This document shows, in pieces, positions 787 to 53,823 of a DNA stretch of 64,000 nt. Location of the stretch: positions 1 to 64,000 of IMG/VR virus record IMGVR_UViG_3300045141_000199. One strand, written 5' to 3'. The notes below the pieces were generated by a model, which worked only from the letters and a program-made list of their open reading frames with translations, had not been told where the DNA came from and ran no database searches. The position numbers and the translations under genes are program-made. The stretch's first letter is position 1. Each line of letters opens with the position of its first letter. The DNA is from a virus.

Positions 787-1176
787 ATGGCGACGAACAA
801 TCAGCTCGTACGCAAGGGGCGCAAGGCCAAGCACCGGAAAGTCAAGCGGCCTGCGCTGGAAGGCGCTCCGCAGAAGCGCGGCGTCTGCATGCGCGTGTAC
901 GTCATCAAACCGCGCAAGCCGAACTCGGCCTTGCGGAAGGTCGCTCGCGTGCGCCTGGTCAACGGCATGGAGGTAACGGCCGCCGTACCTGGCGAGGGCC
1001 ACAACCTACAGGAGCACTCCGTAGTTCTGTTGAGGGGCGGAAGCGTGCCCGATCTCGGCGGAGTGAACTACAAGGTAATCCGCGGCGTGCTCGATTGCGC
1101 TGGCGTCGCCGATCGCGAGCAGTCGCGCTCGAAGTACGGTAAGAAGAAAGACGAGGCGCGCAAGAAAAAGCGGTGA
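787..1176 (+). CDS. rpsL: Ribosomal protein uS12 (phage-encoded variant)
   Basis: A 129-residue protein that aligns without gaps to bacterial S12 from residue 1 to about 120. The N-terminal [22 protein letters not shown] and [10 protein letters not shown] blocks and the C-terminal RSKYG are all present. uS12 sits at the decoding centre of the 30S subunit and contacts the codon-anticodon helix. In E. coli mature numbering K43, P44, N45, S46 and D88 are kept. K42 is Arg, R85 is Ser, K87 is Pro and P90 is Gly; K42, K87 and P90 are classical streptomycin-resistance/accuracy sites. The tail is extended and very basic. The start is fixed by TACGAT at 773-778, 8 nt upstream (near-leaderless). No other ribosomal protein gene adjoins it, so this is a single captured gene. 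Family assignment is certain; assembly into host ribosomes is inferred. Confidence 0.97.
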
Positions 1177-5224: not shown

Positions 5225-5888
5225 AAAGAATTTCTCAGTTAGCACGGTGGCGAAAGCCCCTGAACCGCCGACGACGGGCCTCAGCCTGGAAGTTACGGCC
5301 GGTGAGGGCGTACGCTTTCCTACGCCGCCATTCAATGCGGTGGTAGCTCCCGAAAAAGAAATCGCCACGCCCGAAAATGCTGAGGTTATTCGGGTGACGG
5401 CAATTTCTGTGAACAAATTCACGATCGTTCGCAAACAAGAGAGCAGCGTAGCTCAGCCAATAGCGGCCGGCTTCAGGATTTACTCGGGACAAACCGATAA
5501 GGTCCTGAAAGATATCGAAGCTGGCTTGGTTGGACCGGCCGGTCCTACGGGGGCTACTGGCCCGCCCGGAACCGAACTCGCGCTAGGCGTTGCGGTTACA
5601 ACTACCCCGCGGGTTGTTAAAAAAACCGACGCTGGCAAATCACTTGACGTAAACAGCGCCGTAACCGTGACCATCAAGGTCGAACCGTTCGGCGTAGAAG
5701 GCATACCTGAAGGTAGCGTGTTCGAAATTCTGAAACTAGGAACAGGTAAAGTCAAAATCGAATTTGTCAGCCCGGCAACTGCAATTCCCGTTGCTGCGAC
5801 TTACGAACTTAGGGAAACCGGATCGATCGCTGGTCTGCGGAAAATAGATGGAGCGAATAAATGGGCGATCAGCGGAGATTACGTCTAA
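5211..5888 (+). CDS. Fibre protein with short collagen-like segment
   Basis: A 225-residue protein. Residues about 105-117 form a short collagen-like Gly-X-Y run (GPAGPTGATGPPG), followed by a beta-rich C-terminal domain ending GANKWAISGDYV, typical of phage fibre tips. It is coupled to the genes on both sides (14-nt overlap upstream; its stop TAA shares an A with the next ATG). A trimeric fibre component is likely. Confidence 0.65.
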   Translation: MPDSRKNFSVSTVAKAPEPPTTGLSLEVTAGEGVRFPTPPFNAVVAPEKEIATPENAEVIRVTAISVNKFTIVRKQESSVAQPIAAGFRIYSGQTDKVLKDIEAGLVGPAGPTGATGPPGTELALGVAVTTTPRVVKKTDAGKSLDVNSAVTVTIKVEPFGVEGIPEGSVFEILKLGTGKVKIEFVSPATAIPVAATYELRETGSIAGLRKIDGANKWAISGDYV

Positions 5889-8089
5889 TGCGCGGCCGTA
5901 GGATTTCAACTGAGCGCGGCAAAGTAGTGAAACCGCCTCCTACGATTTTGCCGCAGGGATTGTACTCATGGGGGTTTGACTACGAGGGGGCGCTCGGCGG
6001 CGGCTACGAGCATTATGGCCAAGGTTTCTCTTTCCCTCAAGGCGTAATCACGGTCGATAAAGTAGTAGACATAGCCTGCGGCGAGCGCCATACGATTGTC
6101 GCCAAAGAAAATGGCGCGATCTACATGTGGGGTACCAAGAGGATTGGTGTTCAAGGCGACGGAGCCGGAACCGACCTAGCTGGCGAAGAATCACAGCCTA
6201 CCCCATTGCAGGTCATGGGCGGGATTCCGTTATGGAAAGACGAATTCTTTGAAGATAAATCGAAACCACCGAAAACATTTGAACTAAAAGAAAGTGAAGC
6301 GCCGGTAGCTCCGCTTATGGCGACTTCCCCAACAAACATTCTTATACCCTGCACGCAAGTTGCGGCCGCCAATATTACTGCCTTTGCTCGTACCGCCGAC
6401 GGTCGCGTGCTGGCGTGGGGTTCGGGCGCAGACGTAGGCTTGCTGGCTAACGGCTGGCACCCGGAACACTCAGAATTTCCCCAGCGTAAATACGAAGCTG
6501 GCAAATTACGGCCGCAGCGCGCCCCATGGTGGGTCCAAACTGGCCCGCCGATTCAGGCCGTAGCTCCTGGTGAAACGAATATCCTCAAAGGTGTCAAGGA
6601 AGTTGCTGCTACTTTCTTCTGCGCGTATTTCCTAAAGGAAAACGGCGAAGTTTGGTATTGCGGTTCACCTACTCAAGTAGAAGACGTTATCTACGCTGAA
6701 CCCGAGCCTCTATGGGCGGCGGAAGGTGATCTTCGCGCTGTAGAAATTGATTGTGGACACGATCAATACACTTTGCGGCTCAATAATGGTGAAGTTCGCG
6801 TAGTCGGCTATTGCAAGGAAGGTATGTGGGGAACCGGAGTCGAAGAGGAAAAAGAACTCAAAAAAAATGTTACTAGGGAAGTCAAGACACCAGAAATTTC
6901 TCCAGGCGTGCCGCTAACTGGCGTGATCCAGATATCACAGGGCCAATACAATGTAAAGGCGCTAAAAAGCGATGGAACCCTCTGGACATGGGGATCGAAT
7001 GGAACTTACCCCGGCAACAACCCAACCGTTTTCAACGATGAACCTTCGCAGGGGCTTGGCGCTCCCATAGAGCGGCCGCCTACAAAGCGGCCGGTTCAGA
7101 TAACCTCGCTAGGAAATCAAGTAAAAGAAATCCGTTGCGGAGGCATGATCCGCGGAACGGGAACTTTCGGGGGCGATGTGTGTATCGCGTTGATGAAAGA
7201 CGAAACCATTAGGACGTGGGGGAAGAACAACGACACCGATACCGGCCCTTCTAACTTTCACGGTCAGGGAACCGGAACTCTTGGCGATACAACCTACGAG
7301 AATAAAGGGGCGCCAACCCCGGTGGCGCTCAGCAACATTACCAAAGTAGAAACTGGACAGGCACATATGGTTGTCGTCCAGCAACCTGGAGCGCCCGCAA
7401 CGCCTACGATAAAAGCGACTATAGCCGGCAAAGTTGTAACGGTCGAATGGGAACCCGTAGCAGGAGCGGCCGGAGAAATGCCAACATGGAGGCTGCCGGA
7501 ATCGTGGGACGTTCTTATTCAACGCCAGGGAGAAAATCCCGCCACGAAAAAATCGGAGGCCGTCCAGCGTAAAAACAAACTGTCTTACGCTACGCGAAGT
7601 CAGGCGTTTACTGTCACGACCGAACCTTGGCCTGGAGCACCTAAAACGTTTGAAATAAGTGTTATCGAGAACGCAAAAGGAGAATCGCCGGCTATTACTA
7701 CGCCTGGTGCGATTCCTTACAGCGGTGATCCAGGGATAGGAATAAACGCAGTTTTGCTTTCGTCGTCGGGAGGCAAACTCAAAGTAGAATGGGCCAACCC
7801 CGTAAAAGAAGAATTAGGCTGGTATGTTGAGTGGCAACGTAACGAAGAATATCTCGACAAAAATGGCAAACTTACGAAAGACAACTTTGTCCGCGAGCCA
7901 GAAATCCAAAACCCGGCAGCGCGCTCATATGAATGGACCCCAACCCCTTCTCCTCACGGCCTTACTACTACACAGTTTGTCGTGGAAGTCTATGGAACCT
8001 TCGGCGGCCGCACAAAGGCCGGCGGATCAAATGAAGATGCAGGCTCGTATAGAAAGCGCGTAGCTTTCATCGAAGTTCCTACCTCGTAA
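5888..8089 (+). CDS. RCC1-like beta-propeller tail fibre with Fn3-like C-terminus
   Basis: A 733-residue protein. Residues about 20-510 carry repeated RCC1-type blades: YSWGFDYEGALGGG, VVDIACGERHTIVAKENGAIYMWGT, VLAWGSGADVGLL, GTLWTWGSN, and further variants. RCC1 repeats form a seven-bladed propeller used for protein or ligand binding. Residues about 510-733 look like two fibronectin-III-like domains. The start at 5888 is chosen because its ATG overlaps the preceding TAA. Its place at the end of the fibre cluster suggests a receptor-binding propeller. Confidence 0.75.
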   Translation: MRGRRISTERGKVVKPPPTILPQGLYSWGFDYEGALGGGYEHYGQGFSFPQGVITVDKVVDIACGERHTIVAKENGAIYMWGTKRIGVQGDGAGTDLAGEESQPTPLQVMGGIPLWKDEFFEDKSKPPKTFELKESEAPVAPLMATSPTNILIPCTQVAAANITAFARTADGRVLAWGSGADVGLLANGWHPEHSEFPQRKYEAGKLRPQRAPWWVQTGPPIQAVAPGETNILKGVKEVAATFFCAYFLKENGEVWYCGSPTQVEDVIYAEPEPLWAAEGDLRAVEIDCGHDQYTLRLNNGEVRVVGYCKEGMWGTGVEEEKELKKNVTREVKTPEISPGVPLTGVIQISQGQYNVKALKSDGTLWTWGSNGTYPGNNPTVFNDEPSQGLGAPIERPPTKRPVQITSLGNQVKEIRCGGMIRGTGTFGGDVCIALMKDETIRTWGKNNDTDTGPSNFHGQGTGTLGDTTYENKGAPTPVALSNITKVETGQAHMVVVQQPGAPATPTIKATIAGKVVTVEWEPVAGAAGEMPTWRLPESWDVLIQRQGENPATKKSEAVQRKNKLSYATRSQAFTVTTEPWPGAPKTFEISVIENAKGESPAITTPGAIPYSGDPGIGINAVLLSSSGGKLKVEWANPVKEELGWYVEWQRNEEYLDKNGKLTKDNFVREPEIQNPAARSYEWTPTPSPHGLTTTQFVVEVYGTFGGRTKAGGSNEDAGSYRKRVAFIEVPTS

Positions 8090-8168: not shown

Positions 8169-8241
8169 GGGGGTTTAGCTCAGTTGGGAGAGCGCCTGTT
8201 TTGCAAGCAGGAAGTCAAGGGTTCGAGTCCCTTATCCTCCA
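8169..8241 (+). tRNA. tRNA-Ala (UGC)
   Basis: Cloverleaf with acceptor GGGGGTT/ATCCTCC (one T-T mismatch), D-arm GCTC..GAGC, anticodon loop TTTGCAA and T-loop TTCGAGT. Discriminator A; CCA is not encoded. Confidence 0.95.
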
Positions 8242-8243
8242 TC

Positions 8244-8315
8244 GGACGATTAGCTCAGTGGGAGAGCTTTCGGTTTACACCCGGAGAGTCATAGGTTCGA
8301 ATCCTATATCGTCCA
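8244..8315 (+). tRNA. tRNA-Val (UAC)
   Basis: Acceptor GGACGAT/ATCGTCC is perfect; anticodon loop TTTACAC; T-loop TTCGAAT. CCA not encoded. Two bases separate it from tRNA-Ala. Confidence 0.96.
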
Positions 8316-8319
8316 TAAC

Positions 8320-8394
8320 GGTGAATTAGCTTAGTCCGGGCAAAGCACCCGTCTGATACGCGGGCGATCCAAGGTTCGAATCCTTGATTCACCA
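8320..8394 (+). tRNA. tRNA-Ile (GAU)
   Basis: Acceptor GGTGAAT/ATTCACC; anticodon stem CCCGT/GCGGG with loop CTGATAC; T-loop TTCGAAT. CCA not encoded. Confidence 0.96.
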
Positions 8395-8399
8395 CTCTC

Positions 8400-8472
8400 G
8401 GTTCCGTAGCTCAATGGGAAGAGCGTCCGTCTTATATGCGGTCGGTTCTAGGTTCAAGTCCTAGCGGAACTA
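8400..8472 (+). tRNA. tRNA-Ile (UAU)
   Basis: Acceptor GGTTCCG/CGGAACT; anticodon loop CTTATAT gives UAU, reading AUA directly. Bacteria normally read AUA with a CAU tRNA modified by TilS, so this species avoids that need. CCA not encoded. Confidence 0.9.
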
Positions 8473-8476
8473 CTTC

Positions 8477-8549
8477 GCAGCATTAGCTCAGTTGGTAGAG
8501 CGCCACCGTGCCATGGTGGAGATCATGAGTTCGAATCTCATATGCTGCT
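8477..8549 (+). tRNA. tRNA-Gly (GCC)
   Basis: Acceptor GCAGCAT/ATGCTGC; anticodon stem CCACC/GGTGG with loop GTGCCAT; T-loop TTCGAAT. Discriminator T; CCA not encoded. Confidence 0.96.
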
Positions 8550-8554
8550 TACTT

Positions 8555-8628
8555 GCCTCCGTAGCATAATTGGATAGTGTGGCGGACTTTTAATCCGAAA
8601 GATGTGGGTTCGAATCCCACCGGGGGTA
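8555..8628 (+). tRNA. tRNA-Lys (UUU)
   Basis: Acceptor GCCTCCG/CGGGGGT with G-T pairs; anticodon loop CTTTTAA; T-stem GTGGG/CCCAC. CCA not encoded. Confidence 0.94.
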
Positions 8629-8632
8629 CTTC

Positions 8633-8728
8633 GCGTGAGTAGCTGAATTGGCAGAGCGGCCGTCAAAACGTCGCCCCAGCACTGGTTTTTCACACCAGCG
8701 GATGCGGGTTCGAGTCCCGTCTTGCGCA
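8633..8728 (+). tRNA. tRNA-Glu (UUC) with 23-nt extra segment
   Basis: Acceptor GCGTGAG/CTTGCGC, anticodon stem CTGGT/ACCAG with loop TTTTCAC and T-stem GCGGG/CCCGT fit tRNA-Glu. Between the D-arm and the anticodon arm are 23 additional bases (8658-8680) that can form a small hairpin (GGC-CGT, loop CAAA, ACG-TC-GCC). A type II tRNA-Leu reading with anticodon CAA at 8664-8666 is possible but pairs worse. CCA not encoded. Confidence 0.75.
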
Positions 8729-8734
8729 CTACAC

Positions 8735-8807
8735 AGGCCGCTAGCTCAACTGGAAGAGCAAGACCCTCTTAAGGTCGAGGTTATGGGTTCGATTCCCATG
8801 CGGCCCA
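8735..8807 (+). tRNA. tRNA-Lys (CUU)
   Basis: Acceptor AGGCCGC/GCGGCCC (first pair mismatched), anticodon loop CTCTTAA, T-stem ATGGG/CCCAT. CCA not encoded. Confidence 0.9.
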
Positions 8808-8809
8808 TC

Positions 8810-8884
8810 GCACCCATAGCTCAGTGTGAGAGCACCTGCCGTTCTAAGGCAGGAGGTCCGGCGGTTCGATTCCCCGTGGGTGCA
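8810..8884 (+). tRNA. tRNA-Arg (UCU), first copy
   Basis: Acceptor GCACCCA/TGGGTGC; anticodon stem CTGCC/GGCAG with loop GTTCTAA. The T-stem needs one bulged C (CGG-c-GG with CCCCG). CCA not encoded. Confidence 0.92.
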
Positions 8885-8887
8885 TAC

Positions 8888-8960
8888 GCCATCGTAGCTC
8901 AGCCGGTAGAGCACTTCCTTGGTATGGAAGAGGTCCAGAGTTCGATTCTCTGCGTTGGCT
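8888..8960 (+). tRNA. tRNA-Thr (GGU)
   Basis: Acceptor GCCATCG/CGTTGGC; anticodon stem CTTCC/GGAAG with loop TTGGTAT; T-loop TTCGATT. CCA not encoded. Confidence 0.95.
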
Positions 8961-8962
8961 TC

Positions 8963-9029
8963 GCCTCCTTTTGTGGCAGCGGACGCGCCTTGTAAGCGTG
9001 GCAGCAGGGTTCGATTCCCTGAGGGGGCT
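8963..9029 (+). tRNA. tRNA-Thr (UGU) with degenerate D-arm
   Basis: Acceptor GCCTCCT/AGGGGGC, anticodon stem CGCGC/GCGTG with loop CTTGTAA and T-stem CAGGG/CCCTG are good. Only 14 nt lie between acceptor and anticodon stems, and no normal GCTC..GAGC D-arm can form, so the tRNA is only 67 nt. CCA not encoded. Confidence 0.82.
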
Positions 9030-9032
9030 TAC

Positions 9033-9104
9033 GCTCTCAAGGTGTTCATGGTGGCATCGCGCTTTCGTAATGCGCAGGATCGAGTTCGAATCTCGATGAG
9101 AGCT
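9033..9104 (+). tRNA. tRNA-Thr (CGU), likely
   Basis: Acceptor GCTCTCA/TGAGAGC is perfect and the T-stem TCGAG/CTCGA is good. The anticodon arm GCGCT-TTCGTAA-TGCGC has one T-T mismatch and gives CGU. A register shift would read UCG (Arg), but it pairs worse, and two Thr tRNAs precede it. CCA not encoded. Confidence 0.8.
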
Positions 9105-9112
9105 TTTACAGT

Positions 9113-9179
9113 GCCTATCGTCGCCGCGTTGACAGTAGACGATGGGCCGCATCCGAGCCATAACGCGGTAAAGCTCGGA
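9113..9179 (+). ncRNA. Two-hairpin kissing-loop RNA inside the tRNA array
   Basis: Two hairpins of tRNA-like total size. The first has a 10-bp stem (9113-9122 with 9138-9147, one T-G pair) and a 15-nt loop. The second has a 7-bp stem (9152-9158 with 9173-9179) and a 14-nt loop. Loop 1 contains CCGCGTT (9124-9130) and loop 2 contains its exact complement AACGCGG (9162-9168), so a 7-bp kissing interaction is possible. It does not fit a cloverleaf and carries no CCA end. It would be co-transcribed with the tRNAs. Function unknown. Confidence 0.55.
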
Positions 9180-9188
9180 CAGAATTTC

Positions 9189-9260
9189 GCAGGAGAGATG
9201 TTACTGGCTGCATATCGGCCTTCCACGCCGAGTGAGCGGGTTCGAGTCCCGTCTCCTGCT
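9189..9260 (+). tRNA. tRNA-Gly (UCC)
   Basis: Acceptor GCAGGAG/CTCCTGC; D-stem ATGT/GCAT; anticodon stem TCGGC/GCCGA with loop CTTCCAC; T-loop TTCGAGT. CCA not encoded. Confidence 0.93.
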
Positions 9261-9265
9261 TACAA

Positions 9266-9338
9266 GCTGCGATAGCTCAGTTGGTAGAGCTTGCCGTTGA
9301 AGCCGGCAGAGTCGGCGGTTCGAGTCCGTCTCGCAGCA
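9266..9338 (+). tRNA. tRNA-Phe (GAA)
   Basis: Acceptor GCTGCGA/TCGCAGC; anticodon stem TGCCG/CGGCA with loop TTGAAGC; T-loop TTCGAGT. The 3' end of the release-factor-like gene on the other strand runs through 62 nt of this tRNA. CCA not encoded. Confidence 0.96.
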
Positions 9339-9648
9339 CTTCGATATCTAGATTCTCAGGGCGCATTTGCTCGTTTATCCACGCGTCAAGATTTACTGTT
9401 ATTCGCGCGTGTTGTATTCTTACCCATCGTTGGAACTCGGCCGACTTTGCCATGCGCACAAACGCTTTCTTCTTGTTCTGAAGTTGCGTGCGCTCCTCAC
9501 GCGATTCGCCGCGGGCGCCGCTAGGCGAATGAATTACACGAACTCCTGTGTCCCGCTTGTCTTTATTCTGGCCACCCTTACCTCCGCAGCGGAAGGTCTG
9601 TACTACGCAATCTTTGATCGTGACGGTTAGTATCTTTTCACGCGCCAA
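9277..9648 (-). CDS. GGQ-domain release-factor-like / ribosome-rescue protein
   Basis: A 123-residue protein that is essentially a lone RF-1 catalytic domain. CGGKGGQNKDKRDTGVRV (about residues 21-38) contains the GGQ tripeptide that triggers peptidyl-tRNA hydrolysis in the ribosome, followed by a conserved basic stretch and QLQNKKKAF. The codon-recognition domains of RF1/RF2 are absent, as in ArfB/ICT1-type rescue factors, so it should release peptides independently of stop codons. The basic tail of ArfB is not obvious. Start is TTG, preceded by AGAGG, 11 nt inside the metallophosphoesterase gene, so the two are translationally coupled. The last 20 codons or so are read from the antisense strand of tRNA-Phe. 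Confidence 0.88.
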   Translation of the reverse strand: MAREKILTVTIKDCVVQTFRCGGKGGQNKDKRDTGVRVIHSPSGARGESREERTQLQNKKKAFVRMAKSAEFQRWVRIQHARITVNLDAWINEQMRPENLDIEVLRDGLEPPTLPASTASSTN

Positions 9649-10249
9649 CGAAAGCCTCTGGTGAATCGGCCTTCAAATGCTCGGGCTCGTAACAGCCGAG
9701 TATGTAGCCATCTAAGAGCGCCTTCAAATTCACGGGGCTGTAATGTGTTTGCTCGACCGACACATTAATCTGGTTGGCGCTAAACGGCGTAAAGTCCTGG
9801 CCCTTTCCGCCATATCCGTTGTTGTGGATATGGCCATGCACGCGAATATAAAACTTGTGGTATTCGTCGTGCTTGAGCGGATAGTGCGCAAAGCTCACAT
9901 GGTAAAGGCGGTTGCCGGCCGTGTAGGGGAGCGCGAACGGCTTTACGATTTTGAAACCGCACTCACGATAAAAGCTGGGGCGCTGCCGATCGTGATTACC
10001 GAGGATCAGATACTTAGGCGAGCCCGTGAGATGTTTCGAGATAACATGCTTGAACAGGCCGTTACTCTTCCAGACGAGATCGCCTAGATGTAAGAGAGCA
10101 GCGTCCGGCGGGACAGCGCTAGCCCATTCCTCCATAACGATCTGCTCATGGTCTGTCGGCCTGTGGCAGTACCCAATGATGTTGTTATGGCCGAAATGTG
10201 AATCAGATGTGATCCATGTGCTCGCTGGATCGATAAGTGGTACGCTCAT
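9638..10249 (-). CDS. Calcineurin-like metallophosphoesterase
   Basis: A 203-residue phosphoesterase with the metal-binding series SDSHFGH (15-21), LHLGDLV (about 53-59), GNHDR (about 79-83), FAHYP and VHGHIH (about 137-142). The family cleaves phosphodiesters or phosphomonoesters of nucleic acids or nucleotides, but the substrate is not predictable. Its coupling to the GGQ protein and its place between tRNA blocks raise the possibility of RNA-end processing (inference only). The minus-strand -10 box TATGAT (10256-10261) ends 6 nt before the ATG, suggesting a leaderless mRNA. Confidence 0.92.
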   Translation of the reverse strand: MSVPLIDPASTWITSDSHFGHNNIIGYCHRPTDHEQIVMEEWASAVPPDAALLHLGDLVWKSNGLFKHVISKHLTGSPKYLILGNHDRQRPSFYRECGFKIVKPFALPYTAGNRLYHVSFAHYPLKHDEYHKFYIRVHGHIHNNGYGGKGQDFTPFSANQINVSVEQTHYSPVNLKALLDGYILGCYEPEHLKADSPEAFVGA

Positions 10250-10290
10250 CTAGGAATCATATCATAACTATCTCGGCTGCGCTTGGTTTG

Positions 10291-10299
10291 TGATATAGT
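10291..10299 (+). promoter_or_regulatory. Extended -10 promoter of the Tyr/Ser/Cys tRNA block
   Basis: TGATATAGT, matching the boxes of both large tRNA arrays, begins 18 nt before tRNA-Tyr. It is divergent from the promoter of the metallophosphoesterase gene (TATGAT at 10256-10261, minus strand). Confidence 0.7.
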
Positions 10300-10308
10300 A
10301 TTTAGCTC

Positions 10309-10389
10309 GCTGCGATAGCGAAGTGGACAAACGCGGGTGGCTGTAAACCATCTCCCTCGGGTACCTAGGTTCGAATCCTAGCCGCAGCA
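10309..10389 (+). tRNA. tRNA-Tyr (GUA)
   Basis: Type II tRNA: acceptor GCTGCGA/CCGCAGC (one A-C mismatch), anticodon loop CTGTAAA, variable arm around CCCTCGGG, T-stem CTAGG/CCTAG. CCA not encoded. Confidence 0.94.
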
Positions 10390-10392
10390 TAC

Positions 10393-10476
10393 GGAAGGTG
10401 GCGGGCAGGTGCCCAAACTGGATTTGAACCCCAGGCTACGGCTAGCGTCGTAAGGTTTCGATTACTTCACCTTCCG
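10393..10476 (+). tRNA. tRNA-Ser (UGA), divergent
   Basis: Perfect acceptor GGAAGGT/ACCTTCC and a long variable arm indicate a type II tRNA. The anticodon arm CTGGA-TTTGAAC-CCCAG (one A-C mismatch) reads UGA. The D-arm is reduced to GGGC-AGGT-GCCC and the T-arm has one mismatch, so it may be partly decayed. CCA not encoded. Confidence 0.72.
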
Positions 10477-10480
10477 CTTT

Positions 10481-10569
10481 GGTTAGTTGGCAGAGAGGCC
10501 GAATGCACTGGTTTGCTAAACCAGCGTGGGACTAAAAGACCACCGAAGGTTCGAATCCTTCACTAACCG
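10481..10569 (+). tRNA. tRNA-Ser (GCU)
   Basis: Type II: acceptor GGTTAGT/ACTAACC, anticodon stem CTGGT/ACCAG with loop TTGCTAA, long variable arm, T-stem GAAGG/CCTTC. CCA not encoded. Confidence 0.95.
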
Positions 10570-10570
10570 C

Positions 10571-10645
10571 TTAATTCCGCTGTGGGCCACTGGTCTACAG
10601 GCGGGGCGATTTGCCCGCGTTTCGCCTTCAAGCAACCGGGTACAT
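10571..10645 (+). other. Structured spacer between tRNA-Ser and tRNA-Cys
   Basis: Two mutually exclusive pairings can be seen: CCGCTGT (10577-10583) with ACAGGCGG (10597-10604), and GCGGG (10601-10605) with CCCGC (10614-10618). No cloverleaf or coding sequence fits. It may be a decayed tRNA or a processing element. Confidence 0.3.
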
Positions 10646-10716
10646 GGCGCAGTGGCCGACTGGTTAGGCGGTTGCCTGCAAAGCTTCTAAATCCGGTTCG
10701 ATTCCGGGCTGCGCCT
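10646..10716 (+). tRNA. tRNA-Cys (GCA)
   Basis: Acceptor GGCGCAG/CTGCGCC perfect; anticodon loop CTGCAAA; T-loop TTCGATT. The anticodon stem GTTGC/GCTTC has two T-T mismatches. CCA not encoded. Confidence 0.85.
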
Positions 10717-11049
10717 CTAAATGTCGTCGTAAATCGGTTCAGGCCGATAGCCAATCCGGCGCCGAACGCGATCGAGATTCGGGCAGATAAACGACGGCTC
10801 GCAGCACCCGCCTTCTAAAGCAGTCAACTCGTCAAAGGTCATATCCGGCCGCAGTGGACAAGTACATTGCCTGGCCTCTTGTTCGCGTATCCCCTCTTCA
10901 ATGATTCGACGTATGCCGGCGTCTGAATGGGCTGCCGGCATTGCGTAGGCTGGTTTGTGCTCAGGGCAATTGCGCGGCCGCCTGCCGCGCTTGAGTGGCG
11001 CCTCGTAATCATGATCGCCGATCTCGCAGTAAAGGATTCGCGTGCTCAT
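10717..11049 (-). CDS. Cys-rich hypothetical protein (110 aa)
   Basis: A 110-residue protein with scattered Cys residues (YCEIGDH, NCPEHK, CTCP, GCCEPSFICP), suggesting metal binding of zinc-ribbon type, plus a basic patch KRGRRPRN. Not assigned to a family. The start is chosen for the GGGAG motif about 5 nt upstream. It overlaps the next upstream micro-gene by 4 nt. Its stop abuts the 3' end of tRNA-Cys on the other strand. Confidence 0.6.
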   Translation of the reverse strand: MSTRILYCEIGDHDYEAPLKRGRRPRNCPEHKPAYAMPAAHSDAGIRRIIEEGIREQEARQCTCPLRPDMTFDELTALEGGCCEPSFICPNLDRVRRRIGYRPEPIYDDI

Positions 11050-11177
11050 ACTCGCTCCCAGCCATCGAATCGACTCCTTGCGGGCAAGGCGCCTTTGTCG
11101 CCCTGCTCGCGCAGCAACGTCCAAGCGTCATCATACCCGATCGCGTAAAACTTGCCAGCCGGGGATTCGATCAGCAT
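11046..11177 (-). CDS. Micro-protein (43 aa), CCA-adjacent
   Basis: A 43-residue ORF (MLIESPAGKFYAIGYDDAW..) between the CCA-adding enzyme and the Cys-rich gene, overlapping the latter by ATGA. A better ribosome site (AAGGA) lies before an in-frame ATT at 11195, so translation could begin there. No family recognised. Confidence 0.45.
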   Translation of the reverse strand: MLIESPAGKFYAIGYDDAWTLLREQGDKGALPARSRFDGWERV

Positions 11178-11208
11178 CCGCGGCCGTGCTTGAATGACTT
11201 CCTTACTT

Positions 11209-12642
11209 TTAGTCAATTAACTTCCACGCCCTTTCGTACAGCCACTCGTTAGTGTTTAGCTTCGGTTGAGATAGAACCTCATGCAAAAGTTGACGCTGCA
11301 TCTCGCCGATCGCTCGGCCCTCATAGCCCATTTCGCGGAGTTCGGTTCCGTCGATCGCCAATTCCTTGACGCTGATTGGTACGCCGGCCTTCTGCGCTCG
11401 TACTTGCTCGGCGGCAATCCATGACAGCACTTCCATCGCCTCAGTGATATCTCCGCCCTTGCCAATCACGTCGCATACGCGATGCGTGATTAGATCGCGC
11501 AGTAGCTCATCCCCTAGTTCCGAGCGTAGCCGGCGTATCTTGAACGGACGGATGTTCTCATGCAAGGCGAGCATGTGGCGCTCGATTAGCGTTTTTACGT
11601 CCTGCATTAGACGGTGCGGGGCGTTCAAACGATGCAGGGCTTCATCGGCAAGTTTGGCGCTCCAATACTCATGCGAGTAAAGAGAAGGGACTCCGGCTCC
11701 TAGTTCGACAGCTCGCTTTGGTGCGAGCGCGTAGTAGTGCTGAAGCCCCTCCTCGTCAGTCCACGCCATCGTAGGCTTCCCGCAATCATGGAAAAGTAGC
11801 GCCATACGCACGCGCATGGGCGCGTGGGAGTGCATGTTAGCGGCCGCCTGCACAGCATCAAAGGTATGGTCGCTTGTCGTCTTTTCGTGATAGCGCGAGC
11901 GTTGGTTGTAATCGATCATCGGCGCTAGCTCAGGCAAGAGAATCTGAAGCACGCCAGTTGCGGCCGCTAGTTCAAGAGCGTAACCAGGGCTGGCACCCAT
12001 TAGAATTCCTTCCAGCTCGGTTAGTGCCGTGCCGCTAACTCCCTTTTGAGTCAGGCCAGTCACGGCTCCCGAATGCTCCTGCATTTGGCTATACGCTTCC
12101 GGCGACAGCCGGAAGTGCGGCAGCTTACTGATAAAACGAAGCGCCCGCAGCATCCTAAGTGGGTCTTCCTCGAAAGAGCCGGGGTGTGTCGTGTGAATTA
12201 GCTTTTCGTTGATATCCTTAGCGCCGCCTAGCGGATCGATTAGCGATCCACTGCGAACATCGCGATAAATAGCGTTGATCGTGAAATCGCGTCGCTGGGC
12301 GTCTAGCTCAAGCGGCAGGTTCTCGTTGATAATCATCTCGAAGGCATGCCGCCCATCGCCTGTAGAGCGCTCTGCGCGTGGCAGCACAACCTCAAGCAGG
12401 CCGAGTCCTCGGACCTGCGCCCGGACCCCGATCTGAGGGCCGTTGCCGCGGAGGCGAAGGGAGCCAATCTTGGCTCCTGCGCCCGATAGCGCAGCCGCTA
12501 CGTCCCATAGGGGCGCTCCTCGGACTACGTAATCGGAGTCCTTGCTTTGGCGGCCTAGCAGCTCATCCCGAACCGATCCGCCCACGCGATAGATTTCGGG
12601 AAGGTCGAGAGAGGCCATGAACTGATCGGGAGTCGTGCGCAT
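11209..12642 (-). CDS. cca: CCA-adding tRNA nucleotidyltransferase with HD domain
   Basis: A 477-residue class II nucleotidyltransferase that adds C, C and A to tRNA 3' ends. The catalytic signature is GGSVRDELLGR (about 21-31) followed by KDSDYVV, where the DxD pair binds Mg2+. RRDFTINAIYRD (about 117-128), DPLGG and RMLRALRF follow in order. A C-terminal HD phosphohydrolase domain is present (HTFDA, LFHDCGKP), as in bacterial Cca enzymes. All 34 tRNA genes around it lack an encoded CCA, so the phage tRNAs depend on this activity or the host's. The start at 12642 is chosen because TACGAT on the minus strand (12649-12654) lies 6 nt upstream; the earlier ATG at 12660 would lie upstream of the promoter element. 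Confidence 0.96.
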   Translation of the reverse strand: MRTTPDQFMASLDLPEIYRVGGSVRDELLGRQSKDSDYVVRGAPLWDVAAALSGAGAKIGSLRLRGNGPQIGVRAQVRGLGLLEVVLPRAERSTGDGRHAFEMIINENLPLELDAQRRDFTINAIYRDVRSGSLIDPLGGAKDINEKLIHTTHPGSFEEDPLRMLRALRFISKLPHFRLSPEAYSQMQEHSGAVTGLTQKGVSGTALTELEGILMGASPGYALELAAATGVLQILLPELAPMIDYNQRSRYHEKTTSDHTFDAVQAAANMHSHAPMRVRMALLFHDCGKPTMAWTDEEGLQHYYALAPKRAVELGAGVPSLYSHEYWSAKLADEALHRLNAPHRLMQDVKTLIERHMLALHENIRPFKIRRLRSELGDELLRDLITHRVCDVIGKGGDITEAMEVLSWIAAEQVRAQKAGVPISVKELAIDGTELREMGYEGRAIGEMQRQLLHEVLSQPKLNTNEWLYERAWKLID

Positions 12643-12648
12643 CGCTAA

Positions 12649-12659
12649 ATCGTACCACA
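12649..12659 (-). promoter_or_regulatory. TGTGGTACGAT promoter of the cca gene
   Basis: Extended -10 element 6 nt before the start codon. The same TGTGGTANNNT sequence recurs at 14518-14528 (-), 42187-42197 (+), 46799-46809 (-) and 48286-48296 (-), each just ahead of a gene start. Confidence 0.7.
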
Positions 12660-12673
12660 TCTCGCTAAGTGGC

Positions 12674-12707
12674 GCTAAGTTATGATATAGTTATCAATCC
12701 AGTTGAT
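12674..12707 (+). promoter_or_regulatory. Duplicated tRNA-array promoter (second copy)
   Basis: GCTAAG, 4 nt, GATATAGTTATC, 2 nt, TCC, 1 nt, GTTGAT. The same arrangement with identical spacing is found at 8100-8133. The block runs to the first base of tRNA-Gln. Confidence 0.8.
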
Positions 12708-12777
12708 GCGGAATCGTCTAAAGGCAGGACCGCGGGCCTTGAACCCGCTTGTCTAGGTTCGAATCCTAGTTCCGCAG
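12707..12777 (+). tRNA. tRNA-Gln (UUG)
   Basis: Acceptor TGCGGAA/TTCCGCA; anticodon stem GCGGG/CCCGC with loop CCTTGAA; T-stem CTAGG/CCTAG. Discriminator G; CCA not encoded. Confidence 0.95.
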
Positions 12778-12781
12778 CTAA

Positions 12782-12803
12782 CGGGAAGGGTTAAACCTTC
12801 CCG
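12782..12803 (+). other. Hairpin between two tRNA-Gln genes
   Basis: CGGGAAGG-GTTAAA-CCTTCCCG, a perfect 8-bp stem with no T-run, so it is more likely a processing or spacing hairpin than a terminator. Confidence 0.6.
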
Positions 12804-12808
12804 GCCAA

Positions 12809-12879
12809 TGGGGAGTCGTCTAACGGCAAGACGCGCGGCTCTGAATCGTAAAATGTGGGTTCGATTCCTACCTCCCCAG
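12809..12879 (+). tRNA. tRNA-Gln (CUG)
   Basis: Acceptor TGGGGAG/CTCCCCA; anticodon loop CTCTGAA; T-stem GTGGG/CCTAC. The anticodon stem has one mismatch. CCA not encoded. Confidence 0.9.
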
Positions 12880-12887
12880 CTTATCGA

Positions 12888-12960
12888 TCTAGCGTGGTGT
12901 CAACGGCAGCACGGTCGGCTGTTAACCGATTAGGTCCAGGTTCGAATCCTGGCGCTAGAG
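12888..12960 (+). tRNA. tRNA-Asn (GUU)
   Basis: Acceptor TCTAGCG/CGCTAGA; anticodon loop CTGTTAA; T-stem CCAGG/CCTGG. CCA not encoded. Confidence 0.95.
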
Positions 12961-12964
12961 CTTA

Positions 12965-13035
12965 CGGGGTGAAGTGTTATGGCTGCACCGGGCGCTTGGA
13001 ACGCTCTAGTCAGAGTTCAATTCTCTGCTCCCCGA
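12965..13035 (+). tRNA. tRNA-Pro (UGG)
   Basis: Acceptor CGGGGTG/CTCCCCG (one T-T mismatch); anticodon stem GGGCG/CGCTC with loop CTTGGAA; T-loop TTCAATT. CCA not encoded. Confidence 0.93.
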
Positions 13036-13040
13036 TATCC

Positions 13041-13124
13041 GCCGACATGATGGAATTGGTAGACGTGCTGGTCTTAGAAACCAGTGTCCGCAAGGACGTA
13101 AGGGTTCGAGTCCCTTTGTCGGCA
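13041..13124 (+). tRNA. tRNA-Leu (UAG)
   Basis: Type II: acceptor GCCGACA/TGTCGGC, anticodon stem CTGGT/ACCAG with loop CTTAGAA, variable arm GTCC-GCAA-GGAC. CCA not encoded. Confidence 0.96.
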
Positions 13125-13129
13125 TATAA

Positions 13130-13213
13130 GCCTGTGTGGCGGAATTGGTATACGCGGCGGACTTAAAACCCGCTGGTCTTCGGGCCTTTCGAGTTCGAGT
13201 CTCGACACAGGTA
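13130..13213 (+). tRNA. tRNA-Leu (UAA)
   Basis: Type II: acceptor GCCTGTG/CACAGGT, anticodon loop CTTAAAA, variable arm GGTC-TTCG-GGCC, T-stem TCGAG/CTCGA. CCA not encoded. Confidence 0.95.
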
Positions 13214-13216
13214 TAA

Positions 13217-13299
13217 GCGTGAGTGGTGAAACGGTATACACAGCGGGCTCAAATCCCGCCGGTCGGAAGATCATGCGAGTTCGATTCTCGCCTCACGTA
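13217..13299 (+). tRNA. tRNA-Leu (CAA)
   Basis: Type II: acceptor GCGTGAG/CTCACGT, anticodon stem GCGGG/CCCGC with loop CTCAAAT, T-stem GCGAG/CTCGC. CCA not encoded. Confidence 0.95.
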
Positions 13300-13303
13300 T
13301 TTC

Positions 13304-13377
13304 CCCTCTATAGCTCAGTGGACAGAGCACCAGGCTACGAACCTGGGTTGTCGTGAGTTCGAATCTCGCTAGGGGGT
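13304..13377 (+). tRNA. tRNA-Arg (ACG)
   Basis: Acceptor CCCTCTA/TAGGGGG, anticodon stem CCAGG/CCTGG with loop CTACGAA. A34 must be deaminated to inosine by host TadA to read CGC and CGA. CCA not encoded. Confidence 0.94.
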
Positions 13378-13382
13378 TACAA

Positions 13383-13456
13383 GCTGCTGTAGCTCAGTTG
13401 GCCAGAGCGTCCGCCTGTCGAGCGGAGAGTCGAGGGTTCGAGTCCCTTCAGTAGCG
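13383..13456 (+). tRNA. tRNA-Asp (GUC)
   Basis: Acceptor GCTGCTG/CAGTAGC, anticodon stem TCCGC/GCGGA with loop CTGTCGA, T-loop TTCGAGT. Discriminator G; CCA not encoded. Confidence 0.95.
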
Positions 13457-13458
13457 CT

Positions 13459-13532
13459 GTGACGGATGCCAAAGTGGTCGAGGCGTCAGGTTGTGATCCT
13501 GGCTAGAGCGGGTTCGAGTCCCGTCCGTCACC
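13459..13532 (+). tRNA. tRNA-His (GUG)
   Basis: Acceptor GTGACGG/CCGTCAC with discriminator C, anticodon loop TTGTGAT, T-stem GCGGG/CCCGT. The base before position 1 is T, so the usual G-1 of tRNA-His is apparently not encoded. CCA not encoded. Confidence 0.93.
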
Positions 13533-13625
13533 CTTCCCTTGCAAAGGAACGGTAGACTGCTTAAAGCAGTTGGCCGCAATGCTGCCGGCGGTCGAGGCTG
13601 AGACGCTTTCACTTGCCGGCATCCA
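13533..13625 (+). other. Structured spacer of unknown role in the tRNA array
   Basis: A 93-nt gap with possible hairpins ACTGCT-TAA-AGCAGT (near 13556-13570) and TGCCGGC (13583-13589) with GCCGGCA (13615-13621). No cloverleaf and no convincing coding sequence. Confidence 0.3.
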
Positions 13626-13694
13626 GGGAGATAGGTCATGGTGACCAAGCGGATTCCAAACCCGCAGGCGAGCGTTCAATTCGTTCATCTCCCG
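13626..13694 (+). tRNA. tRNA-Trp (CCA)
   Basis: Acceptor GGGAGAT/ATCTCCC, anticodon loop TTCCAAA, T-stem GAGCG/CGTTC. Only 69 nt, with a short D-loop. Discriminator G; CCA end not encoded. Confidence 0.92.
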
Positions 13695-13698
13695 CTCC

Positions 13699-13766
13699 GG
13701 CTCTGATTTTGGTATTCGACCGCGTTTCATACGCGCGGGATGAAGGTTCGACTCCTTCCAGAGCTA
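13699..13766 (+). tRNA. tRNA-Met (CAU), first copy
   Basis: Acceptor GGCTCTG/CAGAGCT, anticodon stem CGCGT/GCGCG with loop TTCATAC, T-stem GAAGG/CCTTC. Only 68 nt, with a reduced D-arm. A separate Ile(UAU) tRNA exists, so an elongator Met role is more likely than Ile2. CCA not encoded. Confidence 0.88.
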
Positions 13767-13768
13767 TC

Positions 13769-13840
13769 GCCTCTATAGCTCAGCGGAAGAGCTGCCGCCT
13801 TCTAAGCGGCCGGCCGTGAGTTCGAATCTCACTAGGGGCT
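13769..13840 (+). tRNA. tRNA-Arg (UCU), second copy
   Basis: Acceptor GCCTCTA/TAGGGGC, anticodon stem GCCGC/GCGGC with loop CTTCTAA, T-stem GTGAG/CTCAC. Its body differs from the first UCU copy at 8810. CCA not encoded. Confidence 0.95.
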
Positions 13841-13843
13841 TTC

Positions 13844-13916
13844 GTCCTTGTAGCTCAGCGGATAGAGCATCAACCTCCTAAGTTGATGGCCGTGGGTTCG
13901 ATTCCCACCAAGGACT
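13844..13916 (+). tRNA. tRNA-Arg (CCU)
   Basis: Acceptor GTCCTTG/CAAGGAC perfect, anticodon stem TCAAC/GTTGA with loop CTCCTAA, T-stem GTGGG/CCCAC. CCA not encoded. Confidence 0.96.
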
Positions 13917-13987
13917 TGCGGCGAAGTGGTCTGGTGACCATTCGAGCCTCATAAGCTTGAGAGGGTGGTTCAATTCCCCCGCCGCCA
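13917..13987 (+). tRNA. tRNA-Met (CAU), second copy; possible initiator
   Basis: Anticodon stem CGAGC/GCTTG with loop CTCATAA and T-loop TTCAATT. The acceptor TGCGGCG/CGCCGCC has a T-C mismatch at position 1-72 and discriminator A, features shared with bacterial initiator tRNA. The exact ends are ambiguous by one base. CCA not encoded. Confidence 0.82.
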
Positions 13988-13988
13988 C

Positions 13989-14063
13989 GCAGGGGTCTAC
14001 TAACTGGCCTAAGTGCCGACGTTCTCAGCGTCGATGATGCGGGTTCGAATCCCGTCCCCTGTA
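13989..14063 (+). tRNA. tRNA-Glu (CUC)
   Basis: Acceptor GCAGGGG/CCCCTGT, anticodon stem CGACG/CGTCG with loop TTCTCAG, T-stem GCGGG/CCCGT. The D-stem is weak. CCA not encoded. Last gene of the array. Confidence 0.9.
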
Positions 14064-14068
14064 CTCAG

Positions 14069-14097
14069 AAAGGCCCGCTAATTTAGCGGGCCTTTTG
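14069..14097 (+). terminator. Terminator of the second tRNA array
   Basis: AAAGGCCCGCTAA pairs with TTTAGCGGGCCTTT, followed by a T-run. Its core is the same as the terminator at 43180-43206. Confidence 0.92.
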
Positions 14098-14163
14098 TCG
14101 TTATGGAGAGCCCATATTATTTAGGGATTCGCGGGAGAAGGGCCTTAGCGCCGCTCTAACGAG

Positions 14164-45591: not shown

Positions 45592-46098
45592 TTAGGAGGC
45601 TTTGTTGTTGACAATTTTCCATTTGGTAGGCGGCCGGCGCCAGATGTTTTCTTCTGTCGTTACAGGTTCGCCGTATGGAATAGGTGGCGCGATATAAGGC
45701 GCCGCTGTTTCTGGATTAAAGTAAGGCGGAGCTTCCTCTTTGTAAAGCTCAAACGCCTCGAAGATGCCGGCAATATGAGGATCGTGCTTATCCACCAGCT
45801 CACAGCCGATTGCTGTAAGCGATAGACTTTCGATCTCCGTTCGACCCTCGTCAATGATCTTGGCGGCCGCAATGTCCCGATCGGTAACATAATCATACGC
45901 ATTGCGCATATGGCTCTCATTTTTACCGAGCAGGACAATCTTCTTGTAATGACCTGAGCGGTACCAGAGACGCAGCAGATTAGAGTCTGGAGGGGTCAGC
46001 CTGAAGCCCTCCACAGCCGCGTGAGCGGCCTGTGCGGCGATCTTTCCAGGAGACATACCCAAACCCCTGTTTACTATTAAATACATGCAAGGGTCCAT
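45592..46098 (-). CDS. pth2: Peptidyl-tRNA hydrolase, Pth2 family
   Basis: A 168-residue protein carrying the Pth2 signature MYLIVNRGLGMSPGKIAAQ..HAAVEGF (about 5-32), then KKIVLLGKNESHMRNAYDY, AAKIIDEGRTEIESLSLTAIG and ELVDKHDPHIAGIFEAFELY. Pth2 cleaves the ester bond of peptidyl-tRNAs that drop off ribosomes, freeing the tRNA. The family is typical of archaea and eukaryotes and is also found in some bacteria and phages; ordinary bacterial Pth is unrelated in fold. Here it would recycle the phage's own tRNAs. The last 45 residues are an extra tail. The ATG overlaps the preceding stop (TAATG). Confidence 0.92.
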   Translation of the reverse strand: MDPCMYLIVNRGLGMSPGKIAAQAAHAAVEGFRLTPPDSNLLRLWYRSGHYKKIVLLGKNESHMRNAYDYVTDRDIAAAKIIDEGRTEIESLSLTAIGCELVDKHDPHIAGIFEAFELYKEEAPPYFNPETAAPYIAPPIPYGEPVTTEENIWRRPPTKWKIVNNKAS

Positions 46099-53353: not shown

Positions 53354-53823
53354 AGCGGAATATTAATCAGATTTTCAGAACCACATTCAGCGCAAATTTT
53401 GCGATGACCACTACCATGGCGTGTATGTCTTATCTGTAGATTCTCGATTTGATTATCCTCCGTATTTCCGTTGATGTGGTGAACTTCCTCAGTAGAGACT
53501 AGAGGGCGCCCTAAATGCCGCGCCATTATCAATCTGTGCTCAGCCACACGATTCGTTTGTCTATTAATAGTTTTTGCGGACATGATGTGCATAGGATCGT
53601 CTGGTGCAACCCAAACATACCAATACTTTCCCTGTTTTGTTCTTCCCCCTGTCCAGCAATGATGTTGAGATGCCTGTTTTGGGCCGCGGGGTTTTAATTG
53701 ACGTATTTGAAGGTTTTGGTACAACGACCGATGAGTAAAACCGTACTCGTCTTCGAGATCGCAAACAGATTCCCCCTGAAAATAGCGTGGCAGTATCTCA
53801 TCCCAGGGATAGCGAGCGTTCAT
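53350..53823 (-). CDS. HNH homing-type endonuclease (first copy)
   Basis: A 157-residue HNH nuclease: HRLIMARHLGRPL, HHINGNTEDNQIENLQIR, then a zinc pair CAEC. The N-terminus has a small HTH-like segment (DLEDEYGFTHRSLYQNLQIR). It lies between the primase and ATPase genes with 4-nt overlaps, as expected for a free-standing homing gene. Related to the gene at 57488. Confidence 0.92.
   Translation of the reverse strand: MNARYPWDEILPRYFQGESVCDLEDEYGFTHRSLYQNLQIRQLKPRGPKQASQHHCWTGGRTKQGKYWYVWVAPDDPMHIMSAKTINRQTNRVAEHRLIMARHLGRPLVSTEEVHHINGNTEDNQIENLQIRHTRHGSGHRKICAECGSENLINIPL

What the first reader, a model, noticed from the sequence alone, without database searches (positions are those of the whole stretch)
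8169..14063. Thirty-four tRNAs covering all 20 amino acids, none with encoded CCA
By eye I find anticodons for every amino acid; with usual wobble rules and inosine at Arg ACG only CGG lacks an obvious reader. Ile(UAU) replaces the TilS-dependent route, and two Met(CAU) species are present, one with an initiator-like mismatched first pair. The absence of CCA in every gene matches the phage-encoded CCA-adding enzyme placed inside the array.
Basis: partly seen in the sequence, partly recalled or inferred. Interest (0 to 1): 0.78.

Follow-up and report, generated by a model that had tools for sequence, protein, structure and literature searches.

The report
Phage array of 34 tRNA genes
This phage genome carries 34 tRNA genes for all 20 amino acids plus its own tRNA-finishing and tRNA-recycling enzymes; such arrays are known, but one of its tRNAs has an extra fifth hairpin arm that recurs in unrelated phages and that I could not find described.

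Summary
ARAGORN tRNAs at 8169-14064. Two more, Glu(UUC) 8633-8728 and Ser(UGA) 10393-10476, are supported by Rfam, folding and a sister phage. That makes 34 genes, 20 amino acids, all on the + strand, none with an encoded CCA. They are not pseudogenes: against a colinear array in a related phage (portal 63% identical), 184 of 544 stem pairs changed on both sides and still pair. The CCA-adding enzyme lies inside the array, but on the opposite strand.

Two inferences need correction. CCA-less genes are normal in the likely host lineage (2 of 38 encode CCA), so they do not point to the phage enzyme. "Only CGG uncovered" needs U34 to read whole four-codon boxes; by strict wobble 11 codons (17.5% of codons used) lack a reader.

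Clusters with all 20 isotypes are already published, so the array is of a known kind. New here: a five-armed tRNA-Glu(UUC), with a hairpin inside the D loop, in four phages including unrelated ones; conserved D-arm-poor Thr(UGU), Met and Trp tRNAs; and elsewhere in the genome a phage uS12 with changed decoding-centre residues and a Pth2. Best reading: a self-sufficient, recyclable tRNA supply for when the host pool fails.

The parts
8169..9338 (+). tRNA sub-array 1 (14 genes): Ala-UGC 8169-8241, Val-UAC 8244-8315, Ile-GAU 8320-8394, Ile-UAU 8400-8472, Gly-GCC 8477-8549, Lys-UUU 8555-8628, Glu-UUC 8633-8728, Lys-CUU 8735-8807, Arg-UCU 8810-8884, Thr-GGU 8888-8960, Thr-UGU 8963-9029, Thr-CGU 9033-9104, Gly-UCC 9189-9260, Phe-GAA 9266-9338
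   Evidence: ARAGORN, Rfam, arm fits, coordinates and 3' trailers
8633..8728 (+). five-armed tRNA-Glu(UUC): D stem GCUG/CAGC closes a loop holding an extra hairpin (about 8656-8674)
   Evidence: Rfam 55.1 bits; fold; same layout with other hairpin sequences in L003, G067 and (variant) G002
8963..9029 (+). tRNA-Thr(UGU) with a 14-nt D region (normal 18-21)
   Evidence: same 14 nt in L003 1566-1632
9277..9648 (-). RF-1-domain protein with GGQ motif, 123 aa
   Evidence: Pfam RF-1 4.2e-13, phrog_3122 1.4e-38; GGQ kept in the sister phage
9638..10249 (-). calcineurin-like phosphoesterase, 203 aa
   Evidence: Pfam 2e-6, phrog_547 5.7e-35; 59% identical homologue at the same place in G003
10309..10716 (+). 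tRNA sub-array 2 (4 genes): Tyr-GUA 10309-10389, Ser-UGA 10393-10476, Ser-GCU 10481-10569, Cys-GCA 10646-10716
   Evidence: Ser-UGA only as a weak tRNA-Sec-like Rfam match, orthologue Ser-CGA in L003
11209..12660 (-). CCA-adding enzyme (tRNA nucleotidyltransferase), 483 aa
   Evidence: phrog_2244 5.5e-60; Pfam PolyA_pol 9.4e-20 and HD; 66% identical in the sister phage
12707..14063 (+). tRNA sub-array 3 (16 genes): Gln-UUG 12707-12777, Gln-CUG 12809-12879, Asn-GUU 12888-12960, Pro-UGG 12965-13035, Leu-UAG 13041-13124, Leu-UAA 13130-13213, Leu-CAA 13217-13299, Arg-ACG 13304-13377, Asp-GUC 13383-13456, His-GUG 13459-13531, Trp-CCA 13626-13694, Met-CAU 13699-13766, Arg-UCU 13769-13840, Arg-CCU 13844-13916, initiator-like Met-CAU 13917-13987, Glu-CUC 13989-14063
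13626..13766 (+). Trp and elongator Met tRNAs with reduced D regions (16 and 15 nt)
   Evidence: the same lengths in L003
8106..8124 (+). putative extended -10 promoter of sub-array 1 (TGNTATAGT); similar motifs at about 10289 and 12686 before sub-arrays 2 and 3
   Evidence: sequence and motif listing, with motifs at matching places in L003; the sigma-70 scan did not list them: weak
14070..14101 (+). terminator-like hairpin GGCCCGC..GCGGGCC-TTTT closing the array
   Evidence: sequence; matching hairpin with a changed loop at the same place in L003; not listed by the scan
45592..46098 (-). Pth2 peptidyl-tRNA hydrolase (outside the array, functionally linked)
   Evidence: Pfam PTH2 4.5e-20; homologue in the sister phage, 66%
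787..1176 (+). phage uS12 ribosomal protein (outside the array) with R43, P88, G91 (E. coli numbering with Met)
   Evidence: PF00164 3.1e-37; residues; groups with the G002 phage uS12 at 100/98 support

Best explanation
A tailed phage carries a near-complete, functional tRNA set in three co-directional sub-arrays, probably each with its own promoter. Shown: 34 tRNA genes for 20 amino acids, under strong structural selection, none with encoded CCA, kept in the same order in a relative together with a CCA-adding enzyme and a GGQ protein; a Pth2 elsewhere. Inferred: host RNase P and RNase Z cut the tRNAs from polycistronic RNA, host plus phage enzymes add CCA, host synthetases charge them, and Pth2 and the GGQ protein free tRNAs from stalled or dropped-off peptidyl-tRNA. 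The set lets phage translation go on when the host tRNA pool is depleted or badly matched, whether by host tRNA-cutting defences, by phage-induced decay, or by codon bias. The extra arm of Glu(UUC) and the reduced D arms are kept structural changes, most likely altering recognition by host enzymes (nucleases, or modification or turnover enzymes) while leaving decoding intact.
For: 32 ARAGORN plus 2 Rfam-supported genes, 20 amino acids. Expected discriminators and identity marks: G3:U70 in Ala, G-1:C73 in His, C1-G72 with A73 in Pro, G73 in Asn, Asp, Gln, Ser and Trp, U73 in Gly and Cys. Colinear array with the same three enzymes in the same places in sister phage G003. 184 of 544 stem pairs changed on both sides; of 216 pairs with a changed 5' base, 211 still pair in the relative, against 67 if the 3' base had stayed. 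CCA enzyme, GGQ protein, Pth2. All phage codons but CGG are readable with U34 four-box reading.
Against: No expression, charging or CCA-end data. No synthetase or tRNA ligase was seen among the proteins scanned (not every ORF was scanned). The host is unknown, so depletion and codon mismatch cannot be told apart. Superwobble is assumed. The GGQ protein and the phosphoesterase might serve other ends.
Confidence: 0.72

Rival explanations
1. Codon compensation: the array mainly lifts supply for codons rare in a G+C-rich host (phage G+C 54%, GC3 57%).
For: AUA, AGA and similar codons are used and matched by Ile-UAU, Arg-UCU and others. The nearest uS12 relative and the best CCA-enzyme relatives in the sampled class lie in Thermoleophilia, known to me as mostly G+C-rich.
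Against: The set covers every amino acid, including those with one codon or common codons (Met, Trp, Phe, Asp), which plain compensation does not call for. The host is not known.
Confidence: 0.25
2. Nuclease evasion: the array replaces host tRNAs cut by defence nucleases, and the five-armed Glu(UUC) and D-arm-poor tRNAs are resistant forms.
For: Published for mycobacteriophage tRNAs, by anticodon-loop changes (PMC10264068). Structural departures sit on specific isoacceptors and are conserved.
Against: The departures lie in D arms, whereas the published changes lie in anticodon loops. No host nuclease is known here. Ser(UGA) and Ser(CGA), avoided by the published mycobacteriophages, are present.
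Confidence: 0.35
3. Decaying or selfish passenger array: many genes are pseudogenes kept by hitch-hiking.
For: Five genes miss Rfam's tRNA cut-off; two more are missed by ARAGORN; the sister array shows extra and lost genes.
Against: 184 compensated stem changes in 544 pairs, also in the odd genes; identity marks kept.
Confidence: 0.04

Closest known systems
Viral tRNA gene clusters (Morgado and Vicente 2019, PMC6409571)
   Same: 15-37 tRNAs at 2 or more per kb; eight published clusters already hold all 20 isotypes. This array has 34 in 5.9 kb.
   Different: Split into three sub-arrays around antisense CCA-enzyme, phosphoesterase and GGQ genes; five-armed Glu(UUC); reduced D arms.
Mycobacteriophage cluster C1 (Bixzunavirus) tRNA cluster, e.g. 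Erdmann KX721256
   Same: About 30 tRNAs in several runs, with a peptidyl-tRNA hydrolase gene inside the cluster; average 33 tRNAs per phage (PMC10264068).
   Different: Has a tmRNA and a tRNA with anticodon CUA annotated as tRNA-Pyl; no CCA enzyme among the genes of the stretch shown; its Glu(UUC) is 77 nt, without the extra arm.
Huge phages with translation genes (Al-Shayeb 2020, PMC7162821)
   Same: Up to 67 tRNAs, CCA-adding enzymes, release factors and ribosomal proteins in phages.
   Different: Those genomes exceed 200 kb; this contig is 90 kb. The ribosomal proteins named there are S1, S4, S21 and L7/L12, not uS12.

Membership tests
Viral tRNA gene cluster | at least 15 tRNA genes at 2 or more per kb | tested here: met
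   34 genes in 8169-14063, 5.8 per kb
Viral tRNA gene cluster | universal set of 20 isotypes (subset of eight published clusters) | tested here: met
   published subset in PMC6409571
Canonical cloverleaf tRNA | four arms with a D region of normal length (18-21 nt in a Thermoleophilia genome) | tested here: not met
   not met for Glu-UUC (42 nt, extra hairpin), Thr-UGU (14), Met (15), Trp (16); met for the others
CCA-adding enzyme (tRNA nucleotidyltransferase) | PolyA_pol head and HD domains, GGxVRD, DxD and RRD motifs | tested here: met
   GGSVRD, DSD and RRDF read in the alignment
CCA-adding enzyme (tRNA nucleotidyltransferase) | adds CCA, not poly(A) or CC alone | not testable with these tools
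   needs an enzyme assay
Bacterial initiator tRNA | unpaired 1-72 | tested here: met
   U1-C72 in the window, U1-U72 in L003 (and sequence)
Bacterial initiator tRNA | three G-C pairs in the anticodon stem (29-31 with 39-41) | tested here: not met
   anticodon stem CGAGC/GCUUG in the window, CGGGC/GCCUG in L003
RF-1/ArfB-type peptidyl-tRNA hydrolase | RF-1 domain with GGQ motif | tested here: met
   which of release, rescue or recycling it performs was not tested
Ribosomal protein uS12 | PF00164 above cut-off over the family's length | tested here: met
   but residues 43, 88 and 91 are R, P and G
Nuclease-resistant phage tRNAs (van den Berg 2023) | changes at host anticodon-nuclease sites relative to host tRNAs | not testable with these tools
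   host and its nucleases unknown

The most novel reading that the evidence does not exclude
Phages of one host group run a semi-private translation system: their own tRNA set with altered architecture (five-armed Glu(UUC), D-arm-poor Thr, Met and Trp tRNAs), finished and recycled by phage enzymes, working on ribosomes that take up a phage uS12 whose decoding-centre loops are changed at residues linked to fidelity and streptomycin response. The fifth arm of Glu(UUC) would be a new tRNA architecture that shields it from, or marks it for, a host factor.
Probability: 0.2. Interest if true: 0.85.

Novelty: new variant of a known kind. Interest (0 to 1): 0.5.

Why it matters
Why phages carry tRNAs has been argued for decades. 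Here is a compact phage with a full set, processing and recycling enzymes, and conserved structural departures in named isoacceptors, so depletion, nuclease-evasion and codon-bias ideas can be told apart tRNA by tRNA. The five-armed Glu(UUC), kept with unrelated hairpin sequences in four phages, would test which part of a tRNA a host enzyme sees. The phage uS12, if it enters ribosomes, would place phage control at the decoding centre itself.

Tried and rejected
tRNA-Sec reading of 10393-10475: rejected (anticodon UGA, sub-threshold). Further missed tRNAs in the spacers: no unassigned T-loop there; three hits lie inside the CCA gene. The A-C mismatch at 31-39 (Trp, Ser-UGA, Leu-UAA) as a sign of RNA editing: dropped, since a Thermoleophilia Met(CAU) gene has the same mismatch. 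Absence of CCA as a special trait: dropped. G001 as a uS12 phage: rejected, by its sequence it is a bacterial ribosomal-operon contig. Long-D-loop tRNA pattern in 296 genomes of the same phylum: no match, but the pattern assumes a TAGCT D stem, so this is a weak control. A first pattern for host Glu(UUC) caught mostly Asp genes and said nothing. A single-sequence search for the CCA enzyme in IMG/VR found nothing; with an alignment only the sister phage came up. A sigma-70 scan did not list the proposed promoters. A first stem comparison used wrong 3' ends for His and Ser-NGA and was redone. A pair count on alignment A5 failed on the length of the structure string and was not repeated.
Full report
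What is there. ARAGORN tRNA genes from 8169 to 14064, all on the + strand, and none in the rest of the 89.8-kb contig. Rfam adds two genes that ARAGORN misses: 8633-8728, a tRNA with anticodon UUC and a long D region, and 10393-10475, which scores as a weak tRNA-Sec but has anticodon UGA, a long variable arm and G73, that is, tRNA-Ser. The count of 34 and the coverage of 20 amino acids are right. No gene is followed by CCA (0 of 34). Most spacers are 0-8 nt, so the tRNAs must be cut from joint transcripts (inference). Three sub-arrays (14, 4 and 16 genes) are parted by genes on the opposite strand: a GGQ-motif RF-1-domain protein and a phosphoesterase between the first and second, and the CCA-adding enzyme between the second and third.

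Are they real tRNAs? The best test came from a relative. The portal protein led to an 80.4-kb IMG/VR contig (G003, locus L003) with 63% portal identity and dozens of shared genes. It holds the same array in nearly the same order, with the CCA enzyme, GGQ protein and phosphoesterase in the same places. For 32 orthologous pairs I compared 17 stem pairs each: 184 of 544 changed on both sides and still pair; of 216 pairs whose 5' base changed, 211 still pair, whereas only 67 would if the 3' base had stayed. The five genes that miss Rfam's cut-off show the same signal: Thr(UGU), Ser(UGA/CGA) and both Met genes and Thr(CGU). Discriminator bases and known identity marks agree with the anticodons: G3:U70 in Ala, G-1:C73 in His, C1-G72 with A73 in Pro, G73 in Asn, Asp, Gln, Ser and Trp, U73 in Gly and Cys. 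U73 in Thr, odd by E. coli rules, also occurs in the Thermoleophilia genome examined; U73 in three Arg genes does not.

What is odd. First, Glu(UUC) has a D region of 42 nt (38 in the relative; 18-21 in all 38 genes of a Thermoleophilia genome). The predicted fold has a D stem GCUG/CAGC closing a loop that holds an extra hairpin, with the same shape in the window and in L003. Pattern scans of IMG/VR found the same layout in a third phage (G067), and an unrelated phage (G002) has a hairpin of another sequence in the D loop of its Glu(UUC); the minimum-energy fold of the G002 gene on its own is not a cloverleaf, so there the extra arm rests on reading the sequence and on its Rfam score (67.1 bits). 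The hairpin sequences share almost nothing while the flanking D stem and loop are well conserved in three of the four. Among the tRNAs read in these phages the insertion is seen only with anticodon UUC. G002 shares just a handful of proteins with the window phage. The nearest annotated Glu genes of cultured phages that I looked at are 75-77 nt, without it. Second, Thr(UGU), Met and Trp have D regions of 14, 15 and 16 nt in both relatives. These are kept features, not decay.

CCA-less genes are the rule in the plausible host lineage (CCA in 2 of 38), and phage G002 lacks it in all but one of its 30 genes while showing no homologue of this CCA enzyme; so the absence of CCA is compatible with the phage enzyme but is no evidence for it. 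'Only CGG lacks a reader' holds if U34 reads all four codons of the Ala, Val, Pro, Ser and Leu boxes; otherwise 11 codons, 17.5% of codons used, lack a phage reader. The relative fills several of these with Val-GAC, Leu-GAG, Pro-CGG and, by my reading of its sequence, an Arg-CCG at L003 8105. The second Met has the unpaired first position but not the three G-C pairs of an initiator, so it is initiator-like only. Arg-ACG would need host TadA; no TadA was found in the phage.

Wider setting. The same genome encodes a Pth2 peptidyl-tRNA hydrolase and, near the contig start, a full uS12. The uS12 of this phage and of G002 form one supported clade (100/98, but few columns and a long G002 branch) and share R43, P88 and G91, where the 80 nearest bacterial proteins have K43 in 79, K88 or R88 in all 80, and P91 in all 80. 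These positions border the decoding centre and are known to me as streptomycin-response and fidelity sites. The main text of the survey of viral ribosomal proteins does not name uS12. No published work on a phage uS12 or on five-armed phage tRNAs turned up in the searches made, which cover open-access papers only.

Mechanism. Shown: gene content, order, structural selection, lack of CCA, enzymes. Inferred: transcription in three units from extended -10 promoters (motif TGNTATAGT before each sub-array, weak evidence), RNase P and RNase Z cutting, CCA addition by host and phage enzymes, charging by host synthetases, recycling by Pth2 and the GGQ protein. The most likely purpose is to keep phage translation going when host tRNAs are scarce. 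Three causes of scarcity remain open: host tRNA-cutting defence, phage-induced decay, codon mismatch. Full isotype coverage favours the first two over simple compensation.

Standing. Clusters of 15-37 tRNAs are published, eight with all 20 isotypes (PMC6409571); CCA-enzyme relatives are found in 472 phage records; a peptidyl-tRNA hydrolase gene sits in the tRNA cluster of Mycobacterium phage Erdmann. The array as such is therefore a new member of a known kind, and the tRNA architecture makes it a new variant. The host is not known; uS12 and CCA-enzyme relatives point weakly to Thermoleophilia.

Noticed in passing
window 787-1176 (+); L006 1450-1842: Phage-encoded uS12 in two otherwise unrelated phages, sharing R43, P88 and G91 at decoding-centre positions; they form one clade apart from bacterial uS12.
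   Followed up: partly
window 45592-46098 (-): Pth2-type peptidyl-tRNA hydrolase, conserved in the sister phage.
   Followed up: partly
L012-L016 (G002, 82.8-kb phage): A second, unrelated phage with 30 tRNA genes for all 20 amino acids in several clusters; its Leu(CAA) and Leu(UAA) have short variable arms, unlike normal bacterial tRNA-Leu.
   Followed up: partly
L191 (G067 6618-6740): A 123-nt tRNA with anticodon UAA and a very large variable arm, in the phage that also has five-armed Glu(UUC).
   Followed up: no
window 9105-9188, 10570-10645, 13532-13625: Spacers of about 76-94 nt inside the array with hairpin or pseudoknot-like repeats (for example CCGC..CCGAGC..GCGG..GCTCGG near 9150-9180); no T-loop, so not ordinary tRNAs.
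   Followed up: partly
L003 8105-8173 and about 683-752: The sister array seems to hold two more tRNAs not called by ARAGORN: Arg(CCG) with a short D arm, and a Pro-like gene.
   Followed up: partly
window 5861-8089 (+): RCC1-repeat protein (WD40_RLD 2.7e-43) just upstream of the tRNA array, possibly a virion surface part.
   Followed up: no
window 23286-24959 (+): Collagen triple-helix repeats joined to a carbohydrate-binding module CBM_5_12, likely a virion surface protein.
   Followed up: no
window 53820-54812 (-): Archaeo-eukaryotic primase domain of the TOTE conflict-system type (Pfam AEP-TOTE 1.3e-19), next to an AAA protein and a family A DNA polymerase.
   Followed up: no
L135 (G005 C123 1328-2841): A small cluster of six tRNA genes, mostly of odd sequence, in a Thermoleophilia genome bin, perhaps a remnant of a mobile tRNA array.
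   Followed up: no
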